Assembly: GCA_024278775.1 (NCBI GenBank)
Contig: JAJRSP010000008.1
Coordinates: forward strand, 1-9,414
DNA: 9,414 nt
Direction of reading: 5' to 3'
Source of the DNA: Planctomycetota bacterium
GTDB lineage: Bacteria > Planctomycetota > Phycisphaerae > UBA1845
This document shows, one piece after another, positions 138 to 8,744 of the stretch. The notes beneath the pieces are model-generated. The model was not told the origin of the DNA and made no database searches. It saw nothing but the letters and a program-made list of their open reading frames with translations. Numbering within the stretch: position 1 is the first letter of the stretch; every line of letters starts with the position of its first letter. The position numbers and the translations under genes are program-made.

Positions 138-2993
138 CTAATCGAGTTGGCGTTTCCACTCGGCGATTCGTTGCAGCGCGTCGAGCGGGGTGAGCCGGTT
201 CACGTCGGTCTCACGCAGGGCGTCAAGCAGCTTCCGATCTTTCTCGCCCATACCGCCGTGATTCCGAGCGCTGTCATTCGGCCCGGTGCCTGCCGGCGCG
301 TCTTTGGTCTTTTCCGGTTCGCGGCCCGGTTCACCAAAGAGCGATAGCTGTCCGCAGCGCTTGGTTTTCTTGCGAGATAGCTGCGGCGTCTTGGATTCGC
401 GTTCGAAGCCGCGTTGCAGTTCCTCCATGACCTCCCGCGCGCGGTCCGTCACGCCTCGGGGGATCCCCGCGAGCCTGGCGACGTGGATGCCGTAGCTCTG
501 ATTCGCTCCGCCCTCGACGATCTTATGAAGAAACACAATCGACTCACTACCCGGATCGGCGTTCGTGTACTCCCGCACCGCGACGTTGTAGTTTCTCACG
601 CCGCGTATGATCTGCGACAGCTCCGTCATCTCGTGATAATGCGTCGCGATGAGCGAGCGGCACCGGGTCTCGGCGGCCAGATGCTCGGTGATCGCCCACG
701 CCAGCGATAGCCCGTCGAACGTGCTGGTGCCCCGGCCCAGCTCATCCAGCACGACGAGCGATTGTGCCGTGGCGTTGTGCAAGATGTTGGCGGCCTCGGT
801 CATCTCGACCATAAACGTGGACTGCCCGCGCATGATCTCATCCGCCGAGCCGACGCGAGCAAACACCCGATCGACCGGTGCCAACGTCATGGCACTCGCC
901 GGCACGAACGACCCGGTCTGCGCCAAGAGCGTCAGCAACGCCACCTGCCGGATGTAGGTGCTCTTGCCGGCCATGTTCGGCCCGGTGATCACAAAGGTAT
1001 GCCCGTCCGACCGGCTCATCACGCAGTCGTTGGGCACAAAGCCGTCGCCCAACGTCTGATCCAGCACCGGGTGGCGTCCGTCACGAATATCGAGCACGCC
1101 GTCGGTGGTGAACTCGGGCCGGACATACCGCCGCTCGACGGCCACCTCCGCCAGACCGGCCACACAATCGAGCCGACCGATGGCACCGGCCACACGAAGC
1201 AAGGCCGCCATCTCACCCGCGACCGTCGTACAGAGTCCGGCAAAGAGCTTGCCCTCCAACTCGACCGCTCGCTCATGCGCGGTGAGCACCTCATGCTCAT
1301 ATTTCTTGAGCTCGTCGGTGATGTACCGCTCGGCGTTTTTGATCGTCTGCTTCCGCACGTATTCCGGCGGCACCTCGCCGCGGCTGGCGTGGCTGATCTC
1401 GATGTAGTAGCCGAACACCTTATTGAACCCCACTTTGAGATTAGCGATGCCGGTCCGCTCGGCCTCTTTCCGCTGATATTCCGCGAGCCACGTACGCCCG
1501 TCATGCCCGATCGAGCGAAGCCGATCGAGTTCCGCATCGAACCCGTCCGCGATGAAGCCGCCGTCTCGCTGCGTGGGCGGTGGATCATCCCGAAGCGTGC
1601 GCCGGAGCAGCGTGGCCAGCTCGCTCAATCCGAGCAGATCATCCGCAACGGTGGAAAGAAACTTCAACCGCGTCTCGGTTAAGACCTGTGCGACGTCGGG
1701 CAGCGCGCTGAGCGTCTGACCGAGCGCGGCCAGGTCTCGCGGATGCGTCCGAGCCAGCGCCACGCGTGAGGCAATCCGCTCCACATCGGCCATCTGTGAC
1801 AGCGCTCGACGCACACGCGACCGCGTGGGTTCATCTCCCTGGAGCAGCCCCACGGCATCTTGTCGCGCGATGATCGCCTCCACATCGGTCAGCGGCGCGC
1901 GCAGCCAATGGCGAAGTTTTCGCTTACCGATCGGGTGGACGGTGCGGTCGATGGCGTGGTGCAGTGTGCCCTCGCGTGAGGCCGACCGCAGCGTGCGTTC
2001 GATCTCCAAGGAGCGATAGGTGCTGTGATCGAGCTGTACGTAGTCGCCGGTCACGCGCCGCCGCAGGGACGTGATATGCCCCAGCGCCGTCTTCTGCGTC
2101 TCCCCCAGGTATTGAATGATGCCGCCGGCCGCACACACCGACGCGTCCACCGCCTCCAAACCGAACCCGGCCAGCGTCGCCGAGCCGAAGTGGGCCAGTA
2201 GGGATTTTTCTGCCTGATACGCAGCAAGTTCGTGGGCCGGCCTGCGCGTGATGACCGTGCCGCACAGTTGCTCCACTTGCCGGGCGAGCCGCTCCGTCGC
2301 CTCATCGCGCTCGTCGTCGATCAGCAACTCATCCGGGGCATGACACACCAGCGCGTCGACCAGGGTGTCATTGGTCACGTCGATCAACTCGAACCGCCCG
2401 CTGGCAAGTTCGATCATCGCCAGCCCGGCCTCCCCCCCGCGCAGGCATACCGCGGCCAGCGTGTTGTCATCCCCCTCACTTAGCAGCGCCTCATCGGTCA
2501 GCGTGCCGGCCGTGACGATGCGCACGATGTCACGTTTGACGACGCCCTTCGCCTCTTTGGGGTTTTCCAGTTGCTCGGAAATCGCCACGCGATACCCCGC
2601 GACGACCAGCTTCTTAAGATAGCCCTCGAGCGCGTGATACGGAATGCCGGCCAGCGGAATCTCATTGACGGAGCCTTTGTTTCGAGAGGTCAACGCGATC
2701 CCGAGCACCTTCGCACAGAGCACCGCGTCTTCGTAAAAAGTCTCATAAAAATCGCCCATGCGAAAAAGCAACACGGCATCACCGATACGCTTCTTCTGAT
2801 CTACGTATTGCCGCATCGCCGGCGTGAGGCTATCCGACTTGGCAGCCGCGGCCCGCTTCGGCGTGGCGGCTTTGCGCTGAGATGGTGCTGGTATCGTGGC
2901 CAATAGTGGTTTCCTGCCGGTGAAAAAGCACTCCCCGAGTCGTGGTCGCCACGTCTGCGCGACCCACCGGGATAGCCCATCCGACGCGCCCAT
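138..2993 (-). CDS. mutS: DNA mismatch repair protein MutS
   Basis: MutS binds base mismatches and small loops as a clamp and uses ATP to recruit downstream repair factors. Residue numbers count from the ATG at 2993. The N-terminal mismatch-binding domain has GDFYETF with the intercalating Phe82 and Glu84 (the F-x-E motif). The clamp/lever region holds GFNKVFGYYIEIS near residue 520, followed by NAERYITDELKKYE. The ATPase has Walker A GPNMAGKST (671-679), Walker B LVVLDELGRGTST (Asp750, Glu751) and ATHYHEM near 778. QLSLF (882-886) matches the sliding-clamp-binding consensus, and the C-terminus resembles the MutS oligomerisation helices. At 951 aa it is longer than the usual 850-880 aa. A TTG at 2903, preceded by AGGA 8 nt upstream, would give 921 aa starting ATIPAPSQRK and may be the true start; the ATG at 2993 has only a weak ribosome binding site. 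It is divergent from mnmA. The family call is secure and the start is not. Confidence 0.97.
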   Translation of the reverse strand: MGASDGLSRWVAQTWRPRLGECFFTGRKPLLATIPAPSQRKAATPKRAAAAKSDSLTPAMRQYVDQKKRIGDAVLLFRMGDFYETFYEDAVLCAKVLGIALTSRNKGSVNEIPLAGIPYHALEGYLKKLVVAGYRVAISEQLENPKEAKGVVKRDIVRIVTAGTLTDEALLSEGDDNTLAAVCLRGGEAGLAMIELASGRFELIDVTNDTLVDALVCHAPDELLIDDERDEATERLARQVEQLCGTVITRRPAHELAAYQAEKSLLAHFGSATLAGFGLEAVDASVCAAGGIIQYLGETQKTALGHITSLRRRVTGDYVQLDHSTYRSLEIERTLRSASREGTLHHAIDRTVHPIGKRKLRHWLRAPLTDVEAIIARQDAVGLLQGDEPTRSRVRRALSQMADVERIASRVALARTHPRDLAALGQTLSALPDVAQVLTETRLKFLSTVADDLLGLSELATLLRRTLRDDPPPTQRDGGFIADGFDAELDRLRSIGHDGRTWLAEYQRKEAERTGIANLKVGFNKVFGYYIEISHASRGEVPPEYVRKQTIKNAERYITDELKKYEHEVLTAHERAVELEGKLFAGLCTTVAGEMAALLRVAGAIGRLDCVAGLAEVAVERRYVRPEFTTDGVLDIRDGRHPVLDQTLGDGFVPNDCVMSRSDGHTFVITGPNMAGKSTYIRQVALLTLLAQTGSFVPASAMTLAPVDRVFARVGSADEIMRGQSTFMVEMTEAANILHNATAQSLVVLDELGRGTSTFDGLSLAWAITEHLAAETRCRSLIATHYHEMTELSQIIRGVRNYNVAVREYTNADPGSESIVFLHKIVEGGANQSYGIHVARLAGIPRGVTDRAREVMEELQRGFERESKTPQLSRKKTKRCGQLSLFGEPGREPEKTKDAPAGTGPNDSARNHGGMGEKDRKLLDALRETDVNRLTPLDALQRIAEWKRQLD

Positions 2994-3078: not shown

Positions 3079-4539
3079 ATGACTGAGCAACGTGAAAAAG
3101 TCGTGGTGGCCATGAGCGGCGGCGTGGATTCCAGCGTGGCCGTGTGCCTTCTCCAGGAGCAAGGGTACGACGTGCTGGGGCTGTTCATGCGCGTCGGCGT
3201 GACGGCACCCGAAGTTCAAATGGACACCGCCGCCGCTGCACGAGTTGGTGCCGTCTCCAAAACGGCCCGTGCCGTTTCCACAGAGTCTAATGCTGTTTCC
3301 CAAAAGGATGACGCCTTTTCTTCCCCCCTTACCAAGGGGGGATCGAGGGGGGTTCCTCGGGCGAACAAGAACCTCCCCCAGCCCCTCCTTGGTAAGGAGG
3401 GGAGTAAGAAGTCCAACGACCTTCGTGGCAATAACGCTAGCGGCACCACCGCGGCCACCCAGCCCGCCCGACGGCTCAAACAAGGCTGTTGCAGCGCTTC
3501 CGACGCGGACGATGCCCGGTTTGTGGCCGGTATGCTCGGCGTGCCGTTTTACGTGCTCAATTTCCAGGATGACTTCGCGGAGATCATGGACTACTTCGCC
3601 GGGGAGTACGTCCGAGGCCGCACGCCCAACCCGTGCGTCGTCTGCAACGACCGGCTCAAGTTCGGCAAGCTGCTCGACTACGCCGACGCCGTAGGCGCGA
3701 AGTACGTCGCCACCGGGCACTACGCTCGCATCGGTGAGCGCAACGGACGCAAGACCCTGCGACGCGGGAGGGACGCCGACAAGGATCAGTCCTACGTACT
3801 CTTCGGGCTGCGACGCGAGGTACTCGACCGGGTTCTCTTTCCCGTCGGAGATTTGACCAAGCCACAGGTCCGAGCGGTGGCCGGCCGATTGAACCTGCCG
3901 AACGATCAAAAGCCCGACTCGGTTGAGATCTGCTTCGTGCCCGACAACGATTACGCCCGCGTCGTGCGCGAACGCCGGCCGGACGCCTTCGCCGAGGGCG
4001 ATGTGGTCAACCAGGACGGCACGGTCATCGGCCGACACCGCGGCATCGGGCATTACACCGTTGGGCAGCGGCGCGGGCTGGGCATCTCCGCACCCAATCC
4101 CATCTACGTCACCAAGCTCGACGTTCTCCACAACACCGTCGTCACGGGTGAGGCCGATGCTTTGCTTGCCTCCTCACTCATGGCCGATCGCGTCAGCTAT
4201 CTCGTACCCGAACCCACCGGGCCATTTCGAGCTTCGGTGAAGATTCGCTATCTGCACCAGGCCGCGATGGCCACCGTGACGCCACTTTCACAAACCGCAC
4301 CACAAGTAGAGCGGTCTGATCGTACGAATCGCTTGACTCCCCTCGCTCCCCCCTTGGCAAGGGAGGATGAAAGCGTGGATCCGCTACACGAAAACGGTCA
4401 ACGCTCAGGCGATGCCTGCACTCGTGGGGTTCGTGTAGATTTTGACGAGCCCCAGCGCGCCATCACTCCGGGCCAAGCCGTGGTCTTCTACGATGGCGAT
4501 GTGGTGCTCGGCGGTGCGTGGATCGACTCGGCCGGATAG
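3079..4539 (+). CDS. mnmA: tRNA-specific 2-thiouridylase MnmA with two in-frame insertions
   Basis: MnmA activates tRNA wobble U34 with ATP and installs sulfur to make s2U34 in Lys, Glu and Gln tRNAs. The PP-loop SGGVDSS is at residues 13-19. The catalytic nucleophile is Cys189 in NPCVVCND and the persulfide partner is Cys285 in DSVEICFVPD. ATGHYAR, DKDQSYVLF and GQRRGLGI are also present, and the C-terminal beta-barrel ends in ITPGQAVVFYDGD. The protein is 486 aa against about 360-375 aa for the family. The excess lies in two places: between GLFMRVG (ends at residue 40) and GCCSA (from 136), and between ATVTPL (ends at 403) and VRVDFDEPQ (from 451). Both inserts are low-complexity and contain translated palindromic repeat DNA. 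All catalytic motifs are intact and in one frame, so I judge it functional rather than a pseudogene. ATG is supported by AGGAT 9 nt upstream. The gene converges on the receiver gene. Confidence 0.97.
   Translation: MTEQREKVVVAMSGGVDSSVAVCLLQEQGYDVLGLFMRVGVTAPEVQMDTAAAARVGAVSKTARAVSTESNAVSQKDDAFSSPLTKGGSRGVPRANKNLPQPLLGKEGSKKSNDLRGNNASGTTAATQPARRLKQGCCSASDADDARFVAGMLGVPFYVLNFQDDFAEIMDYFAGEYVRGRTPNPCVVCNDRLKFGKLLDYADAVGAKYVATGHYARIGERNGRKTLRRGRDADKDQSYVLFGLRREVLDRVLFPVGDLTKPQVRAVAGRLNLPNDQKPDSVEICFVPDNDYARVVRERRPDAFAEGDVVNQDGTVIGRHRGIGHYTVGQRRGLGISAPNPIYVTKLDVLHNTVVTGEADALLASSLMADRVSYLVPEPTGPFRASVKIRYLHQAAMATVTPLSQTAPQVERSDRTNRLTPLAPPLAREDESVDPLHENGQRSGDACTRGVRVDFDEPQRAITPGQAVVFYDGDVVLGGAWIDSAG
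3247..3330 (+). repeat. 4 x 21-nt tandem repeat inside mnmA (heptapeptide repeat)
   Basis: There are four consecutive 21-nt units in frame with mnmA. They encode GAVSKTA, RAVSTES, NAVSQKD and DAFSSPL, with consensus x-A-V/F-S followed by three variable residues. At DNA level the shared core is roughly GCCGTTTCC. The fourth unit runs directly into the palindromic element, whose left arm begins within it. The units have diverged by substitution only, which keeps the frame. The segment lies in the first extra loop of MnmA and is not part of the conserved fold. Confidence 0.75.
3322..3403. repeat. REPIN-like inverted pair of palindromic units inside mnmA
   Basis: The left arm (3322-3354) and right arm (3370-3403) are inverted copies around a short spacer, 3355-3369. 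The reverse complement of the left arm and the right arm both read AACC, a C-rich run, then CCTTGGTAAGG and a G-run. Each arm is itself a hairpin, with stem CCCCTT/AAGGGG and loop GGT. Two palindromic units facing each other are the architecture of REP doublets (REPINs), which are moved by RAYT transposases encoded elsewhere. The element is translated within mnmA (SPLTKGG on the left, LPQPLLGKEG on the right). The inverted structure is directly visible; membership of a mobile family is inferred. Confidence 0.85.
4335..4370. repeat. Single arm of the same palindromic unit in the 3' part of mnmA
   Basis: This segment aligns without gaps to the reverse complement of the left arm at 3322-3354. 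Both contain CCTCG, one variable base, TCCCCCCTTGG, one variable base, AAGGG, one variable base and GG. It has no inverted partner nearby, so it looks like a solo unit. It is translated as LTPLAPPLARED in the second extra loop of MnmA, within the C-terminal barrel domain. Confidence 0.8.
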
Positions 4540-5136: not shown

Positions 5137-5190
5137 GGACACGAATCGGTGGACCTTTCGGAATCTCCCACCATGCAAACACGCACCCCG

Positions 5191-5262
5191 GTAGGTCGGG
5201 CTCTGCCCGACACTAGGCCCGACATCGACCCGCACGATACGTTTCGTCGGGCGGTGCCCGAC
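5191..5262. repeat. GTCGGGC/GCCCGAC palindromes, copies 1 and 2
   Basis: Copy 1 (5195-5211) is GTCGGGC-TCT-GCCCGAC preceded by GTAG. Copy 2 (5246-5262) is GTCGGGC-GGT-GCCCGAC. Both have perfect 7-bp arms and a 3-nt loop. Copy 1 is followed by TAGGCCCGAC, a half-unit motif seen again near copy 5 as TAAGGCCCGACC. Confidence 0.8.
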
Positions 5263-5300
5263 ACGCTCTTGTACCCGATAACCGCCCTCCGTTCCACCCG

Positions 5301-5320
5301 GTAGGCCAGGCTCGGCCCGA
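5301..5320. repeat. Degenerate GTAGGTCGGGC-type unit, copy 3
   Basis: GTAGG followed by CCAGGCTCGGCCCGA matches copy 1 with several substitutions. The palindrome is weakened and only part of each arm still pairs. I read it as a decayed member of the same family because the GTAGG flank is preserved. Confidence 0.5.
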
Positions 5321-5355
5321 TACAGGTGCAAGACAGTTTCGGCGGGGTGTTCGGC

Positions 5356-5524
5356 GGGTGCCCCATTCTTCGGGTACTCCCGAAGGGTGGGGGATCTGTC
5401 TGCGTGCATACTCGCACAGGCAGGCGGACTGCACGCGTGGAAGTCCTTCCCCCACCCTTCGTGTCACCGAATGTCTGTACTCCTGCTTGAACGTTATCGG
5501 GGTGACACGAAGAATGGGGCACCC
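5356..5524. repeat. Large compound inverted repeat (REPIN-like, 169 bp)
   Basis: The outer arms are a perfect 17-bp inverted match: GGGTGCCCCATTCTTCG (5356-5372) with 5508-5524. The inner arms are a perfect 14-bp inverted match: CGAAGGGTGGGGGA (5381-5394) with 5448-5461. Each half also folds on itself. The left half has TTCGGG-TACT-CCCGAA (5369-5384). The right half has GTGTCACC (5461-5468) with GGTGACAC (5501-5508), extended by the arms. The element is therefore two inverted copies of one palindromic unit, with a longer loop in the right copy. The centre (5395-5447) carries a smaller CGTGCA/TGCACG inverted pair. Confidence 0.85.
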
Positions 5525-5526
5525 CC

Positions 5527-5547
5527 GCCGGGCGGTGCCCGACCTAC
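5527..5547 (-). repeat. GTCGGGC palindrome, copy 4 (inverted orientation)
   Basis: GCCGGGC-GGT-GCCCGAC is followed by CTAC, so on the minus strand it reads GTAG-GTCGGGC and matches copy 1 in the opposite direction. It begins two bases after the large inverted repeat, so the two repeat families abut. Confidence 0.75.
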
Positions 5548-5633
5548 CTGCTGGCCCGTTCCACTCAACATGGCCACGCAGGCGTGGACCATGCCACACG
5601 AGAAGCCTGACATACGCGCCACGCGCGGCGCGT

Positions 5634-7313: not shown

Positions 7314-8744
7314 ATGAGGACACGATGGAAAGGTTCCTTGCAGACGGCGTTGATTATCGGCGTCTTGGGAGGATCGGCCGCCCAAGCTGAGCCGGCGGAT
7401 AAGTCCCACCCCCCCAAGGCCGGACAGAAGTATCTCAACCTCCGTTATGACGAGGACTTCAGCTACCTGGATGGTGAGCCGGGTACGTACCGGGAGGATT
7501 TCTGGGATCCCATCAAAAACATTCACCTTACCGATGATTGGCGTTTGTCGATCGGCGGTCAGGTTCGTTATCGGTGGGAGTACGAGACCAACAAGACCTT
7601 CGGTGCGGTTGACCCGACGTCCGACAGCTTTTCGCTCCACCGATGGTTCCTGCATGGGGACTTCAGGTACCAGAACTCGTTCCGGGTGTTTGTGGAAGGG
7701 ATATCCGCGTTCGACGAGGAACGCGATCTGCCGCGGCGGGGCATCGATGAGAACAAGTGGGATCTGCACCAGTTGTTCTTCGATGTGAAACCGCTTGGCG
7801 ACGATCTACCGTTGACGCTTCGTGTCGGTCGGCAGGAATTGGAATACGGTAATGAGCGTCTGGTTTCGCCGTTTGACTGGGGCAACATCCGGCGTCGTTT
7901 CGACGGCGTCAAGCTGTTTGCCAAAGGCCACACGTGGGACGTCGCGATGTGGTGGGTCAGGCCCGTGCCCGTGCAGCGAAAGCAGCGCGATCGGTATAAC
8001 GAAGACTTCGAGTTCTACGGTCTCTACGCCACCTACAAAGGGATCAAGAACCACGGACTCGATCTGTATTTCCTGGCGATCGACGACGACGGTAACCCCA
8101 TGAGCCCGAACGGCAAGATCGGCGATCGGGACATTTACACTCTCGGCACCAGATTTTGGGGTAGAACCGGCGACTGGGACTATGAGACGGAAATTGCCGG
8201 TCAGTGGGGTAATTGGGCCGGAGACACGGTACAGGCGTGGGCCTTCACCGCGGAGGGCGGATACACGTTCAAGGACGTGGCTTGCAAGCCGCGTCTCGGG
8301 GTCGGGTTTGATCTCGCCACTGGTGATGATGATCCGTTCGATTCCAGCGTGGGGACGTTCGATCAGATGTTCCCCCTTAGCCACAAGTACTTTGGCTTCT
8401 TGGACCTCGTGGGGCGTAAGAACATCAACGCCCTCAACTTCAATTTGACCGCGTGGCCGGTGCCCAAAAAGGTTCGGACGGCGGCGGCCTTCCATACGTT
8501 CTGGCTGAACGAAAAGGACGACGCTCTTTATAGCGCCAGCGGAGCTCCGGGGCGACGCGACGTGACTGCTCACAGTGGTCGCGAGGTAGGGCGCGAGCTC
8601 GACCTGACAGTGCTGTGGAAACTGGACCACCACTCTGCCATGCTGTTTGGTTACTCCCACTTCTGGGAGCAGGATTTCATCGTCAACACAGGTACCAGCG
8701 AAGACGCGGACCTGTTTTATATTCAATACAAGTATAAGTTCTAG
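7314..8744 (+). CDS. Outer membrane beta-barrel, alginate_exp (AlgE-like) family
   Basis: This 476-aa porin-like protein is predicted to sit in the outer membrane. Residues 1-25 are a signal peptide ending A-Q-A before Glu26. The body shows alternating aromatic/polar strands typical of a barrel, such as WRLSIGGQVRYRWEYE, FRYQNSFRVFVEG and LTLRVGRQELEYGNERLV. The stretch RQELEYGNERLVSPFDW followed by NIRRRFDGVKL (about 173-201) is the signature I associate with the alginate-export family. The last residues, YIQYKYKF, end in Phe, as expected for Bam-dependent insertion. ATG is fixed by GGAGG 7 nt upstream. AlgE itself exports alginate in Pseudomonas, but no alginate biosynthesis genes are here. 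Planctomycete members are numerous and untested, so the substrate is unknown. A small putative lipoprotein follows 91 nt downstream. Confidence 0.88.
   Translation: MRTRWKGSLQTALIIGVLGGSAAQAEPADKSHPPKAGQKYLNLRYDEDFSYLDGEPGTYREDFWDPIKNIHLTDDWRLSIGGQVRYRWEYETNKTFGAVDPTSDSFSLHRWFLHGDFRYQNSFRVFVEGISAFDEERDLPRRGIDENKWDLHQLFFDVKPLGDDLPLTLRVGRQELEYGNERLVSPFDWGNIRRRFDGVKLFAKGHTWDVAMWWVRPVPVQRKQRDRYNEDFEFYGLYATYKGIKNHGLDLYFLAIDDDGNPMSPNGKIGDRDIYTLGTRFWGRTGDWDYETEIAGQWGNWAGDTVQAWAFTAEGGYTFKDVACKPRLGVGFDLATGDDDPFDSSVGTFDQMFPLSHKYFGFLDLVGRKNINALNFNLTAWPVPKKVRTAAAFHTFWLNEKDDALYSASGAPGRRDVTAHSGREVGRELDLTVLWKLDHHSAMLFGYSHFWEQDFIVNTGTSEDADLFYIQYKYKF

What the first reader, a model, noticed from the sequence alone, without database searches (positions are those of the whole stretch)
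3199..3483. Translated REPIN-like palindromic element in an essential-type tRNA modification gene
Residues 41-135 of MnmA replace a loop that is roughly 25-30 residues in the relatives I recall. The extra DNA contains an inverted pair of C/G-rich palindromic units (3322-3354 and 3370-3403), which are read through in frame while every catalytic motif is kept. Rickettsia palindromic elements are the established precedent for repeats living inside coding genes. A similar process in a planctomycete, in a core enzyme, would be notable. The insert lies after the second strand of the PP-loop domain, before the GCCSA helix, where a surface loop is expected.
Basis: partly seen in the sequence, partly recalled or inferred. 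Interest (0 to 1): 0.8.

Follow-up and report, generated by a model that had tools for sequence, protein, structure and literature searches.

The report
Mobile palindrome translated inside MnmA
A small hairpin-shaped jumping element has landed in the gene of a core tRNA-modifying enzyme of an uncultured planctomycete and is apparently read straight through as 50 extra amino acids, in a loop where relatives carry other translated repeats.

Summary
The mnmA frame is intact and both palindromes are read in frame. They are the middle of a larger element: a 148-bp quasi-palindrome (3290-3437) with TA on both sides. With one TA it adds 150 bp, exactly 50 codons; removing it leaves an open frame and a CTAG site.

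It is not a canonical REPIN: no GTAG tag was seen, and no RAYT-type transposase was linked to it in the nearest held genome. Its ends match a complete 1.17-kb IS630-family insertion sequence in a related genome. Best reading: an IS630-type MITE behaving like a Rickettsia palindromic element.

The nearest held genome (G329) has about 30 copies, two of them inside other genes in frame (modA, an M56 peptidase), and a decayed relic at the same mnmA site. A closer homologue (P0002) lacks it. The mnmA core is under purifying selection (dN/dS 0.07).

Translation is inferred; the window's genome is not held and no structure model was obtained.

The parts
3079..4539 (+). mnmA, tRNA 2-thiouridine(34) synthase, 486 aa, open frame
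3193..3480 (+). Loop 1 (residues 39-134), stands where E. coli MnmA has 8 residues; length-variable landing site
3290..3437 (+). Full-length 148-bp palindromic MITE; with one TA (3438-3439) adds 150 bp = 50 codons
3288..3289 (.). Left TA flank (CTA); joined flanks give CTAG
3438..3439 (.). Right TA flank (TAG)
3290..3307 (+). Left terminal inverted repeat; counted from CTA (3287), 18 and 20 of 24 nt match the two ends of the G247 IS630 element
3420..3437 (-). Right terminal inverted repeat; from 3440 inwards 16 of 24 nt match the IS left end, the best place on the minus strand of the window
3323..3341 (+). Hairpin 1, CCCCCCTT-ACC-AAGGGGGG, codes PLTKGG
3382..3402 (+). Hairpin 2, CCCCTCCTT-GGT-AAGGAGGGG, codes PLLGKEG
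3248..3286 (+). Two further end-like stretches (3248-3265, 3269-3286), perhaps relics of earlier insertion or end duplication
4336..4397 (-). Half-copy of the same element in the second loop (one hairpin and a degenerate end), another reading phase
4291..4428 (+). Loop 2 (residues 405-450), stands where E. coli MnmA has 3 residues

Best explanation
A non-autonomous IS630-type MITE transposed into a CTAG site in the codons of a loop of mnmA. The element is 148 bp and, as IS630 elements do, probably duplicated the dinucleotide TA, so the gene gained exactly 150 bp, 50 codons; the element is stop-free in the frame used, so the enzyme stayed whole and the element is translated as part of it. The loop, between the second strand of the ATP-binding (PP-loop) domain and the helix after GCCSA, tolerates extra residues, so selection kept the carrier. 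Copies decay: a half-copy sits in a second loop, and the nearest held relative has a shortened relic at the same place. Shown by computation: the element, its copies in a relative, TA flanks, an IS630 element with the same ends, the open frame, purifying selection on the core. Inferred: mobilisation by that transposase, TA duplication, translation into protein, harmlessness to the enzyme.
For: Element family: 15 copies covering at least 80% of the consensus (14 in G329 loci plus the window); the 151-column consensus folds as one long hairpin at -87 kcal/mol. Copies: 33 BLAST matches in G329, the query itself included, 30 with E below 0.01 (40 of 43 candidates scored).

TA target: of the 18 distinct ends in G329 loci within 2 mismatches of the end pattern, 11 are preceded by TA (1 in 16 by chance); within 3 mismatches 15 of 27, within 4 (where unrelated matches enter) 18 of 46. 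In the window the ends are 148 bp apart, element plus TA is 150 bp, and the joined flanks read AGTCTAGCGG with no stop.

Mover: G247:C158 has two perfect inverted ends 1.17 kb apart, flanked CTA...TAG, enclosing two overlapping frames that match IS630 transposase NF033545 at positions 1-127 and 136-298 (75.0 and 94.4 bits, each under the 100-bit cut-off) and DDE_3, with an A8-G run such as programmed frameshifting uses.

Gene kept: window against G329 mnmA, dN/dS 0.072 over 338 core codons, 0.48 over 50 loop-1 codons, 0.63 over 46 loop-2 codons.

Same behaviour elsewhere: an in-frame copy inside modA of G329 (residues 174-240 stand where PDB 3r26 has about 21) and one inside an M56 peptidase gene.

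Relic at the same mnmA site in G329; no palindrome in P0002.
Against: No protein or transcript data. The window's genome is not held. The autonomous IS was found in another genome of the class; in G329 DDE_3 gave 0 matches and no long-range pair of ends was listed. TA could be the outermost pair of the ends rather than a duplicated target; only a real empty site would tell. The modA copy has CA outside each end (CA on the left and TG on the right of the top strand), not TA. The window's right end matches the IS at only 16 of 24 nt. P0002 is closer to the window than G329 yet lacks the element, so a loss in P0002 or two insertions must be assumed. Spans between paired ends in G329 vary: 148, 148, 149 and 154 bp, but also 88, 88 and 181 (computed from positions), so the frame-keeping size is not universal.
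Confidence: 0.85

Rival explanations
1. The element is a true REPIN: a pair of GTAG-tagged REPs moved by a RAYT transposase.
For: Inverted pair of hairpins. Y1-transposase matches occur in all 8 genomes searched, 3 in G329. One of 30 fetched Y1 loci (L156 in G010) has a hairpin pair nearby.
Against: No GTAG or CGTC tag seen by eye in the consensus. Ends and TA flanks are those of IS630. 29 of 30 fetched Y1 loci lack the core in the stretch held. The L156 pair has the opposite arrangement, tails outside.
Confidence: 0.06
2. The insert is not in the final protein: it is bypassed by the ribosome, removed from the RNA, or cut out.
For: Strong hairpin (-68 kcal/mol, z -2.5 against 200 shuffles), the kind of structure that can promote bypassing.
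Against: The frame is open and a multiple of three here, and open through the copies in modA and the M56 gene; bypassing would not need that. Related hairpins are read in other phases in L105 and in loop 2. No intein family and no RNA family matched.
Confidence: 0.05
3. The gene is dead and the element merely sits in a pseudogene that still happens to be open.
For: Two inserts in one gene; the own genome could not be checked for a second mnmA.
Against: Core dN/dS 0.072 against G329 and no stop; the columns invariant in the 120-sequence alignment, the window included, are kept.
Confidence: 0.02
4. Loop 1 is an ordinary low-complexity linker that drifts in length, and the likeness to repeats elsewhere is composition.
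For: Many of the 120 loops hold A, S, T, E and P-rich stretches with no recognised repeat. 2 of 7 loops tested (L105, L084) had no further own-genome copy among the listed rows.
Against: Loop DNA of 7 mnmA genes gave 305 matches in the 7 genomes, an equal length of conserved mnmA DNA 8, of which 7 are mnmA itself. 5 of 7 loops have further copies of a stretch in their own genome. It cannot explain the MITE in the window.
Confidence: 0.05

Closest known systems
Rickettsia palindromic elements (RPE)
   Same: About 150 bp, palindromic, dispersed, inserted in frame in unrelated genes and potentially translated (passages of PMC10969869; section 15 and passages of PMC3733652).
   Different: Another phylum; here a likely mover family and TA flanks are visible. 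Sequence kinship to RPE families was not tested.
IS630-family MITEs
   Same: Inverted ends shared with an IS630 element, TA flanks, no transposase of its own.
   Different: Internally a pair of C/G-rich hairpins, and copies are kept inside open frames of conserved genes.
REPINs and GTAG/CGTC REPs
   Same: Inverted hairpin pair. Intragenic REPs are on record, many in Opitutus terrae of the same superphylum, and also in tRNA pseudouridine synthase genes of several species; REPs as such are reported from planctomycetes (PMC3733652, abstract and section 15).
   Different: No tag seen, no linked RAYT found, IS630-type ends.

Membership tests
IS630-type MITE | Inverted ends shared with an autonomous IS630 element | tested here: met
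   G247:C158 ends and IS630 frames; window left end 18 and 20 of 24 nt against the two IS ends, right end 16 of 24
IS630-type MITE | TA target duplication | tested here: inconclusive
   TA outside 11 of 18 best ends and on both sides in the window, but no real empty site was compared
IS630-type MITE | No transposase of its own, several copies per genome | tested here: met
   148 bp; 30 matches with E below 0.01 in G329, the query included
IS630-type MITE | Moved in trans by the IS630 transposase | not testable with these tools
   needs an experiment
REPIN / GTAG-CGTC REP | GTAG or CGTC terminal tag | tested here: not met
   By eye: the consensus has neither next to the hairpins
REPIN / GTAG-CGTC REP | Association with a RAYT gene | tested here: not met
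   3 Y1 loci in G329, none with the core in the stretch fetched
REPIN / GTAG-CGTC REP | Two hairpins in inverted orientation | tested here: met
Rickettsia palindromic element | About 150-bp palindromic element | tested here: met
Rickettsia palindromic element | In-frame insertion in unrelated genes | tested here: met
   mnmA, modA, M56 peptidase
Rickettsia palindromic element | Sequence kinship to the described RPE families | not tested
   no RPE sequence was compared
MnmA | Curated family score and conserved columns | tested here: met
   NF001138 393.7 bits against 284; alignment A3

The most novel reading that the evidence does not exclude
Two loops of MnmA are recurrent landing pads for genomic repeats across a class of planctomycetes. 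About seven unrelated DNA repeat families (the window's hairpin-pair family and those coding PRGLKPAA/AAGFSPRG, DREGAD/ATVRER/GRGSD, CVGM, RHEG, FRIPHS and PAGKPVP, some of them read on either strand or in several frames) have entered the same loop again and again in frame, so that repeat DNA is routinely turned into protein in a core enzyme. Because the same IS630-type ends adjoin other repeats in other genomes, one vehicle may deliver several of them.
Probability: 0.6. Interest if true: 0.72.

Novelty: new variant of a known kind. Interest (0 to 1): 0.62.

Why it matters
[quoted passage not shown] Here is a clear case in another phylum with a likely mover family, a frame-keeping size, a palindrome-free relative and a decaying relic. 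The two loops make it testable how bacteria tolerate repeat DNA as protein: one enzyme, one assay, many natural inserts.

Tried and rejected
REPIN identity: rejected for lack of a visible tag and of a linked RAYT. IS630 transposase in G329: DDE_3 gave 0 matches; it turned up in G247 through its ends. Known RNA family: none in the window at the gathering threshold. Copies in plasmid and phage records: none. A de novo 15-mer count in 800 kb of G409 gave nothing usable; BLAST of the seven loops found 13 places there, 9 inside long frames, 7 of those 9 within about 50 residues of a frame end, so internal in-frame insertion is not rampant in that sample and mnmA may be unusual; the sample is small. 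Loop lengths in other phyla by a regular expression are rough: 7 of 73 frames failed and L105 and L107 are plainly cut short; I rest. The motif count includes three chance hits in native 9-residue loops (P0045, P0062, P0115). Nine peptide motifs first looked like nine families; six-frame reading showed that several are one DNA repeat read on another strand or in another frame, so I claim about seven families with the hairpin pair.

Full report
What is there. The window's mnmA (3079-4539) is a complete 486-aa frame scoring 393.7 bits to the MnmA equivalog. Against E. coli MnmA (2der) its residues 39-134 stand where that protein has 8 residues, and 405-450 where it has 3.

The element. The window's own genome is not held. 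Searching 397 genomes of one class (that of G001, a record titled Phycisphaerae bacterium) with P0002 gave 362 with a match at E up to 0.001; the closest, G329 (3.5 Mb), is 81% identical to P0002 over residues 46-405. Its loops equal those of P0003, which is 70% identical to the window's protein. The hairpin core occurs at 17 sites in G329 with 0 reversed-control matches, and at 46, 22, 12, 7, 1, 1 and 0 sites in G326, G010, G364, G083, G241, G409 and G198 (controls 1, 9, 0, 1, 1, 1 and 1). Aligning the G329 sites showed likeness beyond the hairpins, except at two sites (C46 and C283) that carry no element; of the other 15, six keep the hairpin pair and nine only one hairpin. A search with one long copy gave 33 matches in G329, the query included, 30 with E below 0.01. 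A profile recovered 15 copies covering at least 80% of the consensus, among them window 3276-3443; the consensus is a single quasi-palindrome of 151 columns.

Ends, target and mover. Of the 18 ends in G329 loci within 2 mismatches, 11 are preceded by TA. In the window the ends lie 148 bp apart with CTA on both outer sides; removing element plus one TA takes out 150 bp and leaves AGTCTAGCGG and an open frame of 436 aa. In G329 the spans between paired ends are 148 (modA), 148, 149 and 154 bp, and also 88, 88 and 181 (from positions). The end pattern was then sought in 397 genomes of the class: 49 have a match with up to one mismatch, many of them single matches that may be chance. In G247 two perfect ends face each other 1.17 kb apart. 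The DNA between them (L263) has CTA...TAG edges and two overlapping frames, HTH and DDE_3, that together span IS630 transposase NF033545, each half alone below the family's cut-off. An A8-G run lies in the overlap. The 24-nt left IS end finds its best place on the plus strand of the window at 3287 (18 of 24), then at 3245 (17), 3266 and 8452 (16 each), and its best on the minus strand at 3440 (16). I conclude that the element is an IS630-type MITE. That IS630 elements duplicate TA and prefer CTAG is recalled, not from a call.

Copies in other genes of G329. I scanned 20 frames that contain copies with Pfam; not every frame over every copy was scanned. Internal and in frame: modA, where residues 174-240 interrupt the fold at about 21 residues of 3r26, and an M56 peptidase, where the copy sits, by eye, between N-terminal hydrophobic helices and the peptidase domain. 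At the C-terminal end of a recognised gene: a ParA-like ATPase, an LPG-synthase-type membrane protein, a FabA-like protein. At the N-terminal end, where the true start is uncertain: GGDEF, LpxI, terminase, DUF4139 (below cut-off), flavin reductase and a sulfatase, the last probably upstream of its lipoprotein signal. The other nine scanned frames matched nothing. So only a minority of the roughly 30 copies are shown to lie inside genes.

History in mnmA. The G329 gene has a shortened copy at the same place, a left-hairpin start joined to a right end, while P0002, closer to the window, has no palindrome in either loop. One insertion in a common ancestor followed by decay in G329 and loss in P0002 is the simplest reading; two insertions are not excluded. 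The gene is under selection: dN/dS 0.072 in the core, 0.48 and 0.63 in the loops.

The landing-pad pattern. Loop 1 (residues 39-135) exceeds 40 aa in 60 of 120 homologues, and the loop-2 segment (400-451) exceeds 14 aa in 24 of 120. Hairpin-type peptides occur in loop 1 of 7 of 120 and loop 2 of 9 of 120 (3 of these are chance hits in native 9-residue loops), against 1 of 120 in the rest of the proteins (42,813 residues). Other recurrent peptides in loop 1: PRGLKPA-type in 11 of 120, RHEG-type 6, FRIPHS-type 5, GRGSD 4, AAGFSP 4, VGM 3, RERP 3, DREGAD 2, PAGKPVP 2; the rest of the proteins has 0 or 1 each. Six-frame reading shows that PRGLKPAA and AAGFSPRG are two strands of one repeat (L090), and that DREGAD, ATVRE and a near-GRGSD peptide come from one stretch (L093) in different frames, so these nine motifs are about six families, seven with the hairpin pair. 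To test whether they are genomic repeats, loop-1 DNA of 7 of the 30 mnmA loci fetched, chosen for their long loops, was compared with their 7 genomes: 305 matches, each genome's own mnmA included. In the listed rows 5 of 7 loops (L087, L090, L093, L106, L107) have further copies of a stretch in their own genome, while L105 and L084 have none (only 40 candidates per genome were scored and the list was cut, so counts are lower bounds). The same length of conserved DNA from the same genes gave 8 matches, 7 of them mnmA itself. RHEG, FRIPHS and PAGKPVP were not tested against an own genome; that they are genomic repeats is inferred from their recurrence. In L105 (G083) the loop holds a hairpin pair 83% identical over 81 nt to the window's but in another reading phase, and the window's loop-2 half-copy uses the third, so these are separate insertions.

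How it most likely works. A MITE jumps to a CTAG in a loop, adds 50 codons, is stop-free in the frame used, and is tolerated. In 10 copies examined, 23 of 60 frames were stop-free, so only a fraction of insertions can survive; selection removes the rest and survivors drift as loop sequence.

What is known. Intragenic REPs in several species, many in replication and repair genes and some in tRNA pseudouridine synthases, are in PMC3733652 (abstract, passages, sections 5 and 15 seen). RPEs of about 150 bp in Rickettsia genes are summarised in PMC10969869 (passages). The original RPE papers were not read (one look-up failed). My seven paper searches listed no report, by title or start of abstract, of translated IS630 MITEs in planctomycetes or of MnmA loops as insertion sites; the library holds open-licence papers only.

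Limits. No own genome, no structure model, no expression data. The link to the IS630 element rests on shared ends across genomes. Whether mnmA is special among genes was tested only in an 800-kb sample of one genome.

Noticed in passing
window 5187-5548: Cluster of another palindromic repeat, e.g. arms 5190-5209 (GGTAGGTCGGGCTCTGCCCG) and 5529-5548, 90% complementary; it begins with GGTAGG and looks more like a GTAG-type REP than the mnmA element does.
   Followed up: no
L267, L268, L274, L276 (G391, G397, G373, G403): The same IS630-type end adjoins other repeats there, some resembling those translated in other MnmA loops (by eye). One vehicle may carry several repeat families.
   Followed up: partly
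L263 1-1175 (G247:C158): Complete 1.17-kb IS630-family element with two overlapping transposase frames and an A8-G run suggesting programmed frameshifting; three further single ends of it in G247 lie near contig edges.
   Followed up: partly
L143 2448-3548 (G329:C325): modA, molybdate-binding protein, with a 148-bp copy of the element read in frame in the middle of the fold.
   Followed up: yes
window 138-2993, minus strand: The MutS frame has about 55 residues before the MutS models start, so the true start is probably inside the listed frame.
   Followed up: no
window 7314-8744: 476-aa frame with no NCBIfam match; it reads like an outer-membrane barrel protein (impression, not tested).
   Followed up: no
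L156 2779-2846 (G010:C189): A hairpin pair in the opposite arrangement (tails outside) about 1 kb from a Y1-transposase match; might be a RAYT-linked relative of the hairpin core.
   Followed up: partly
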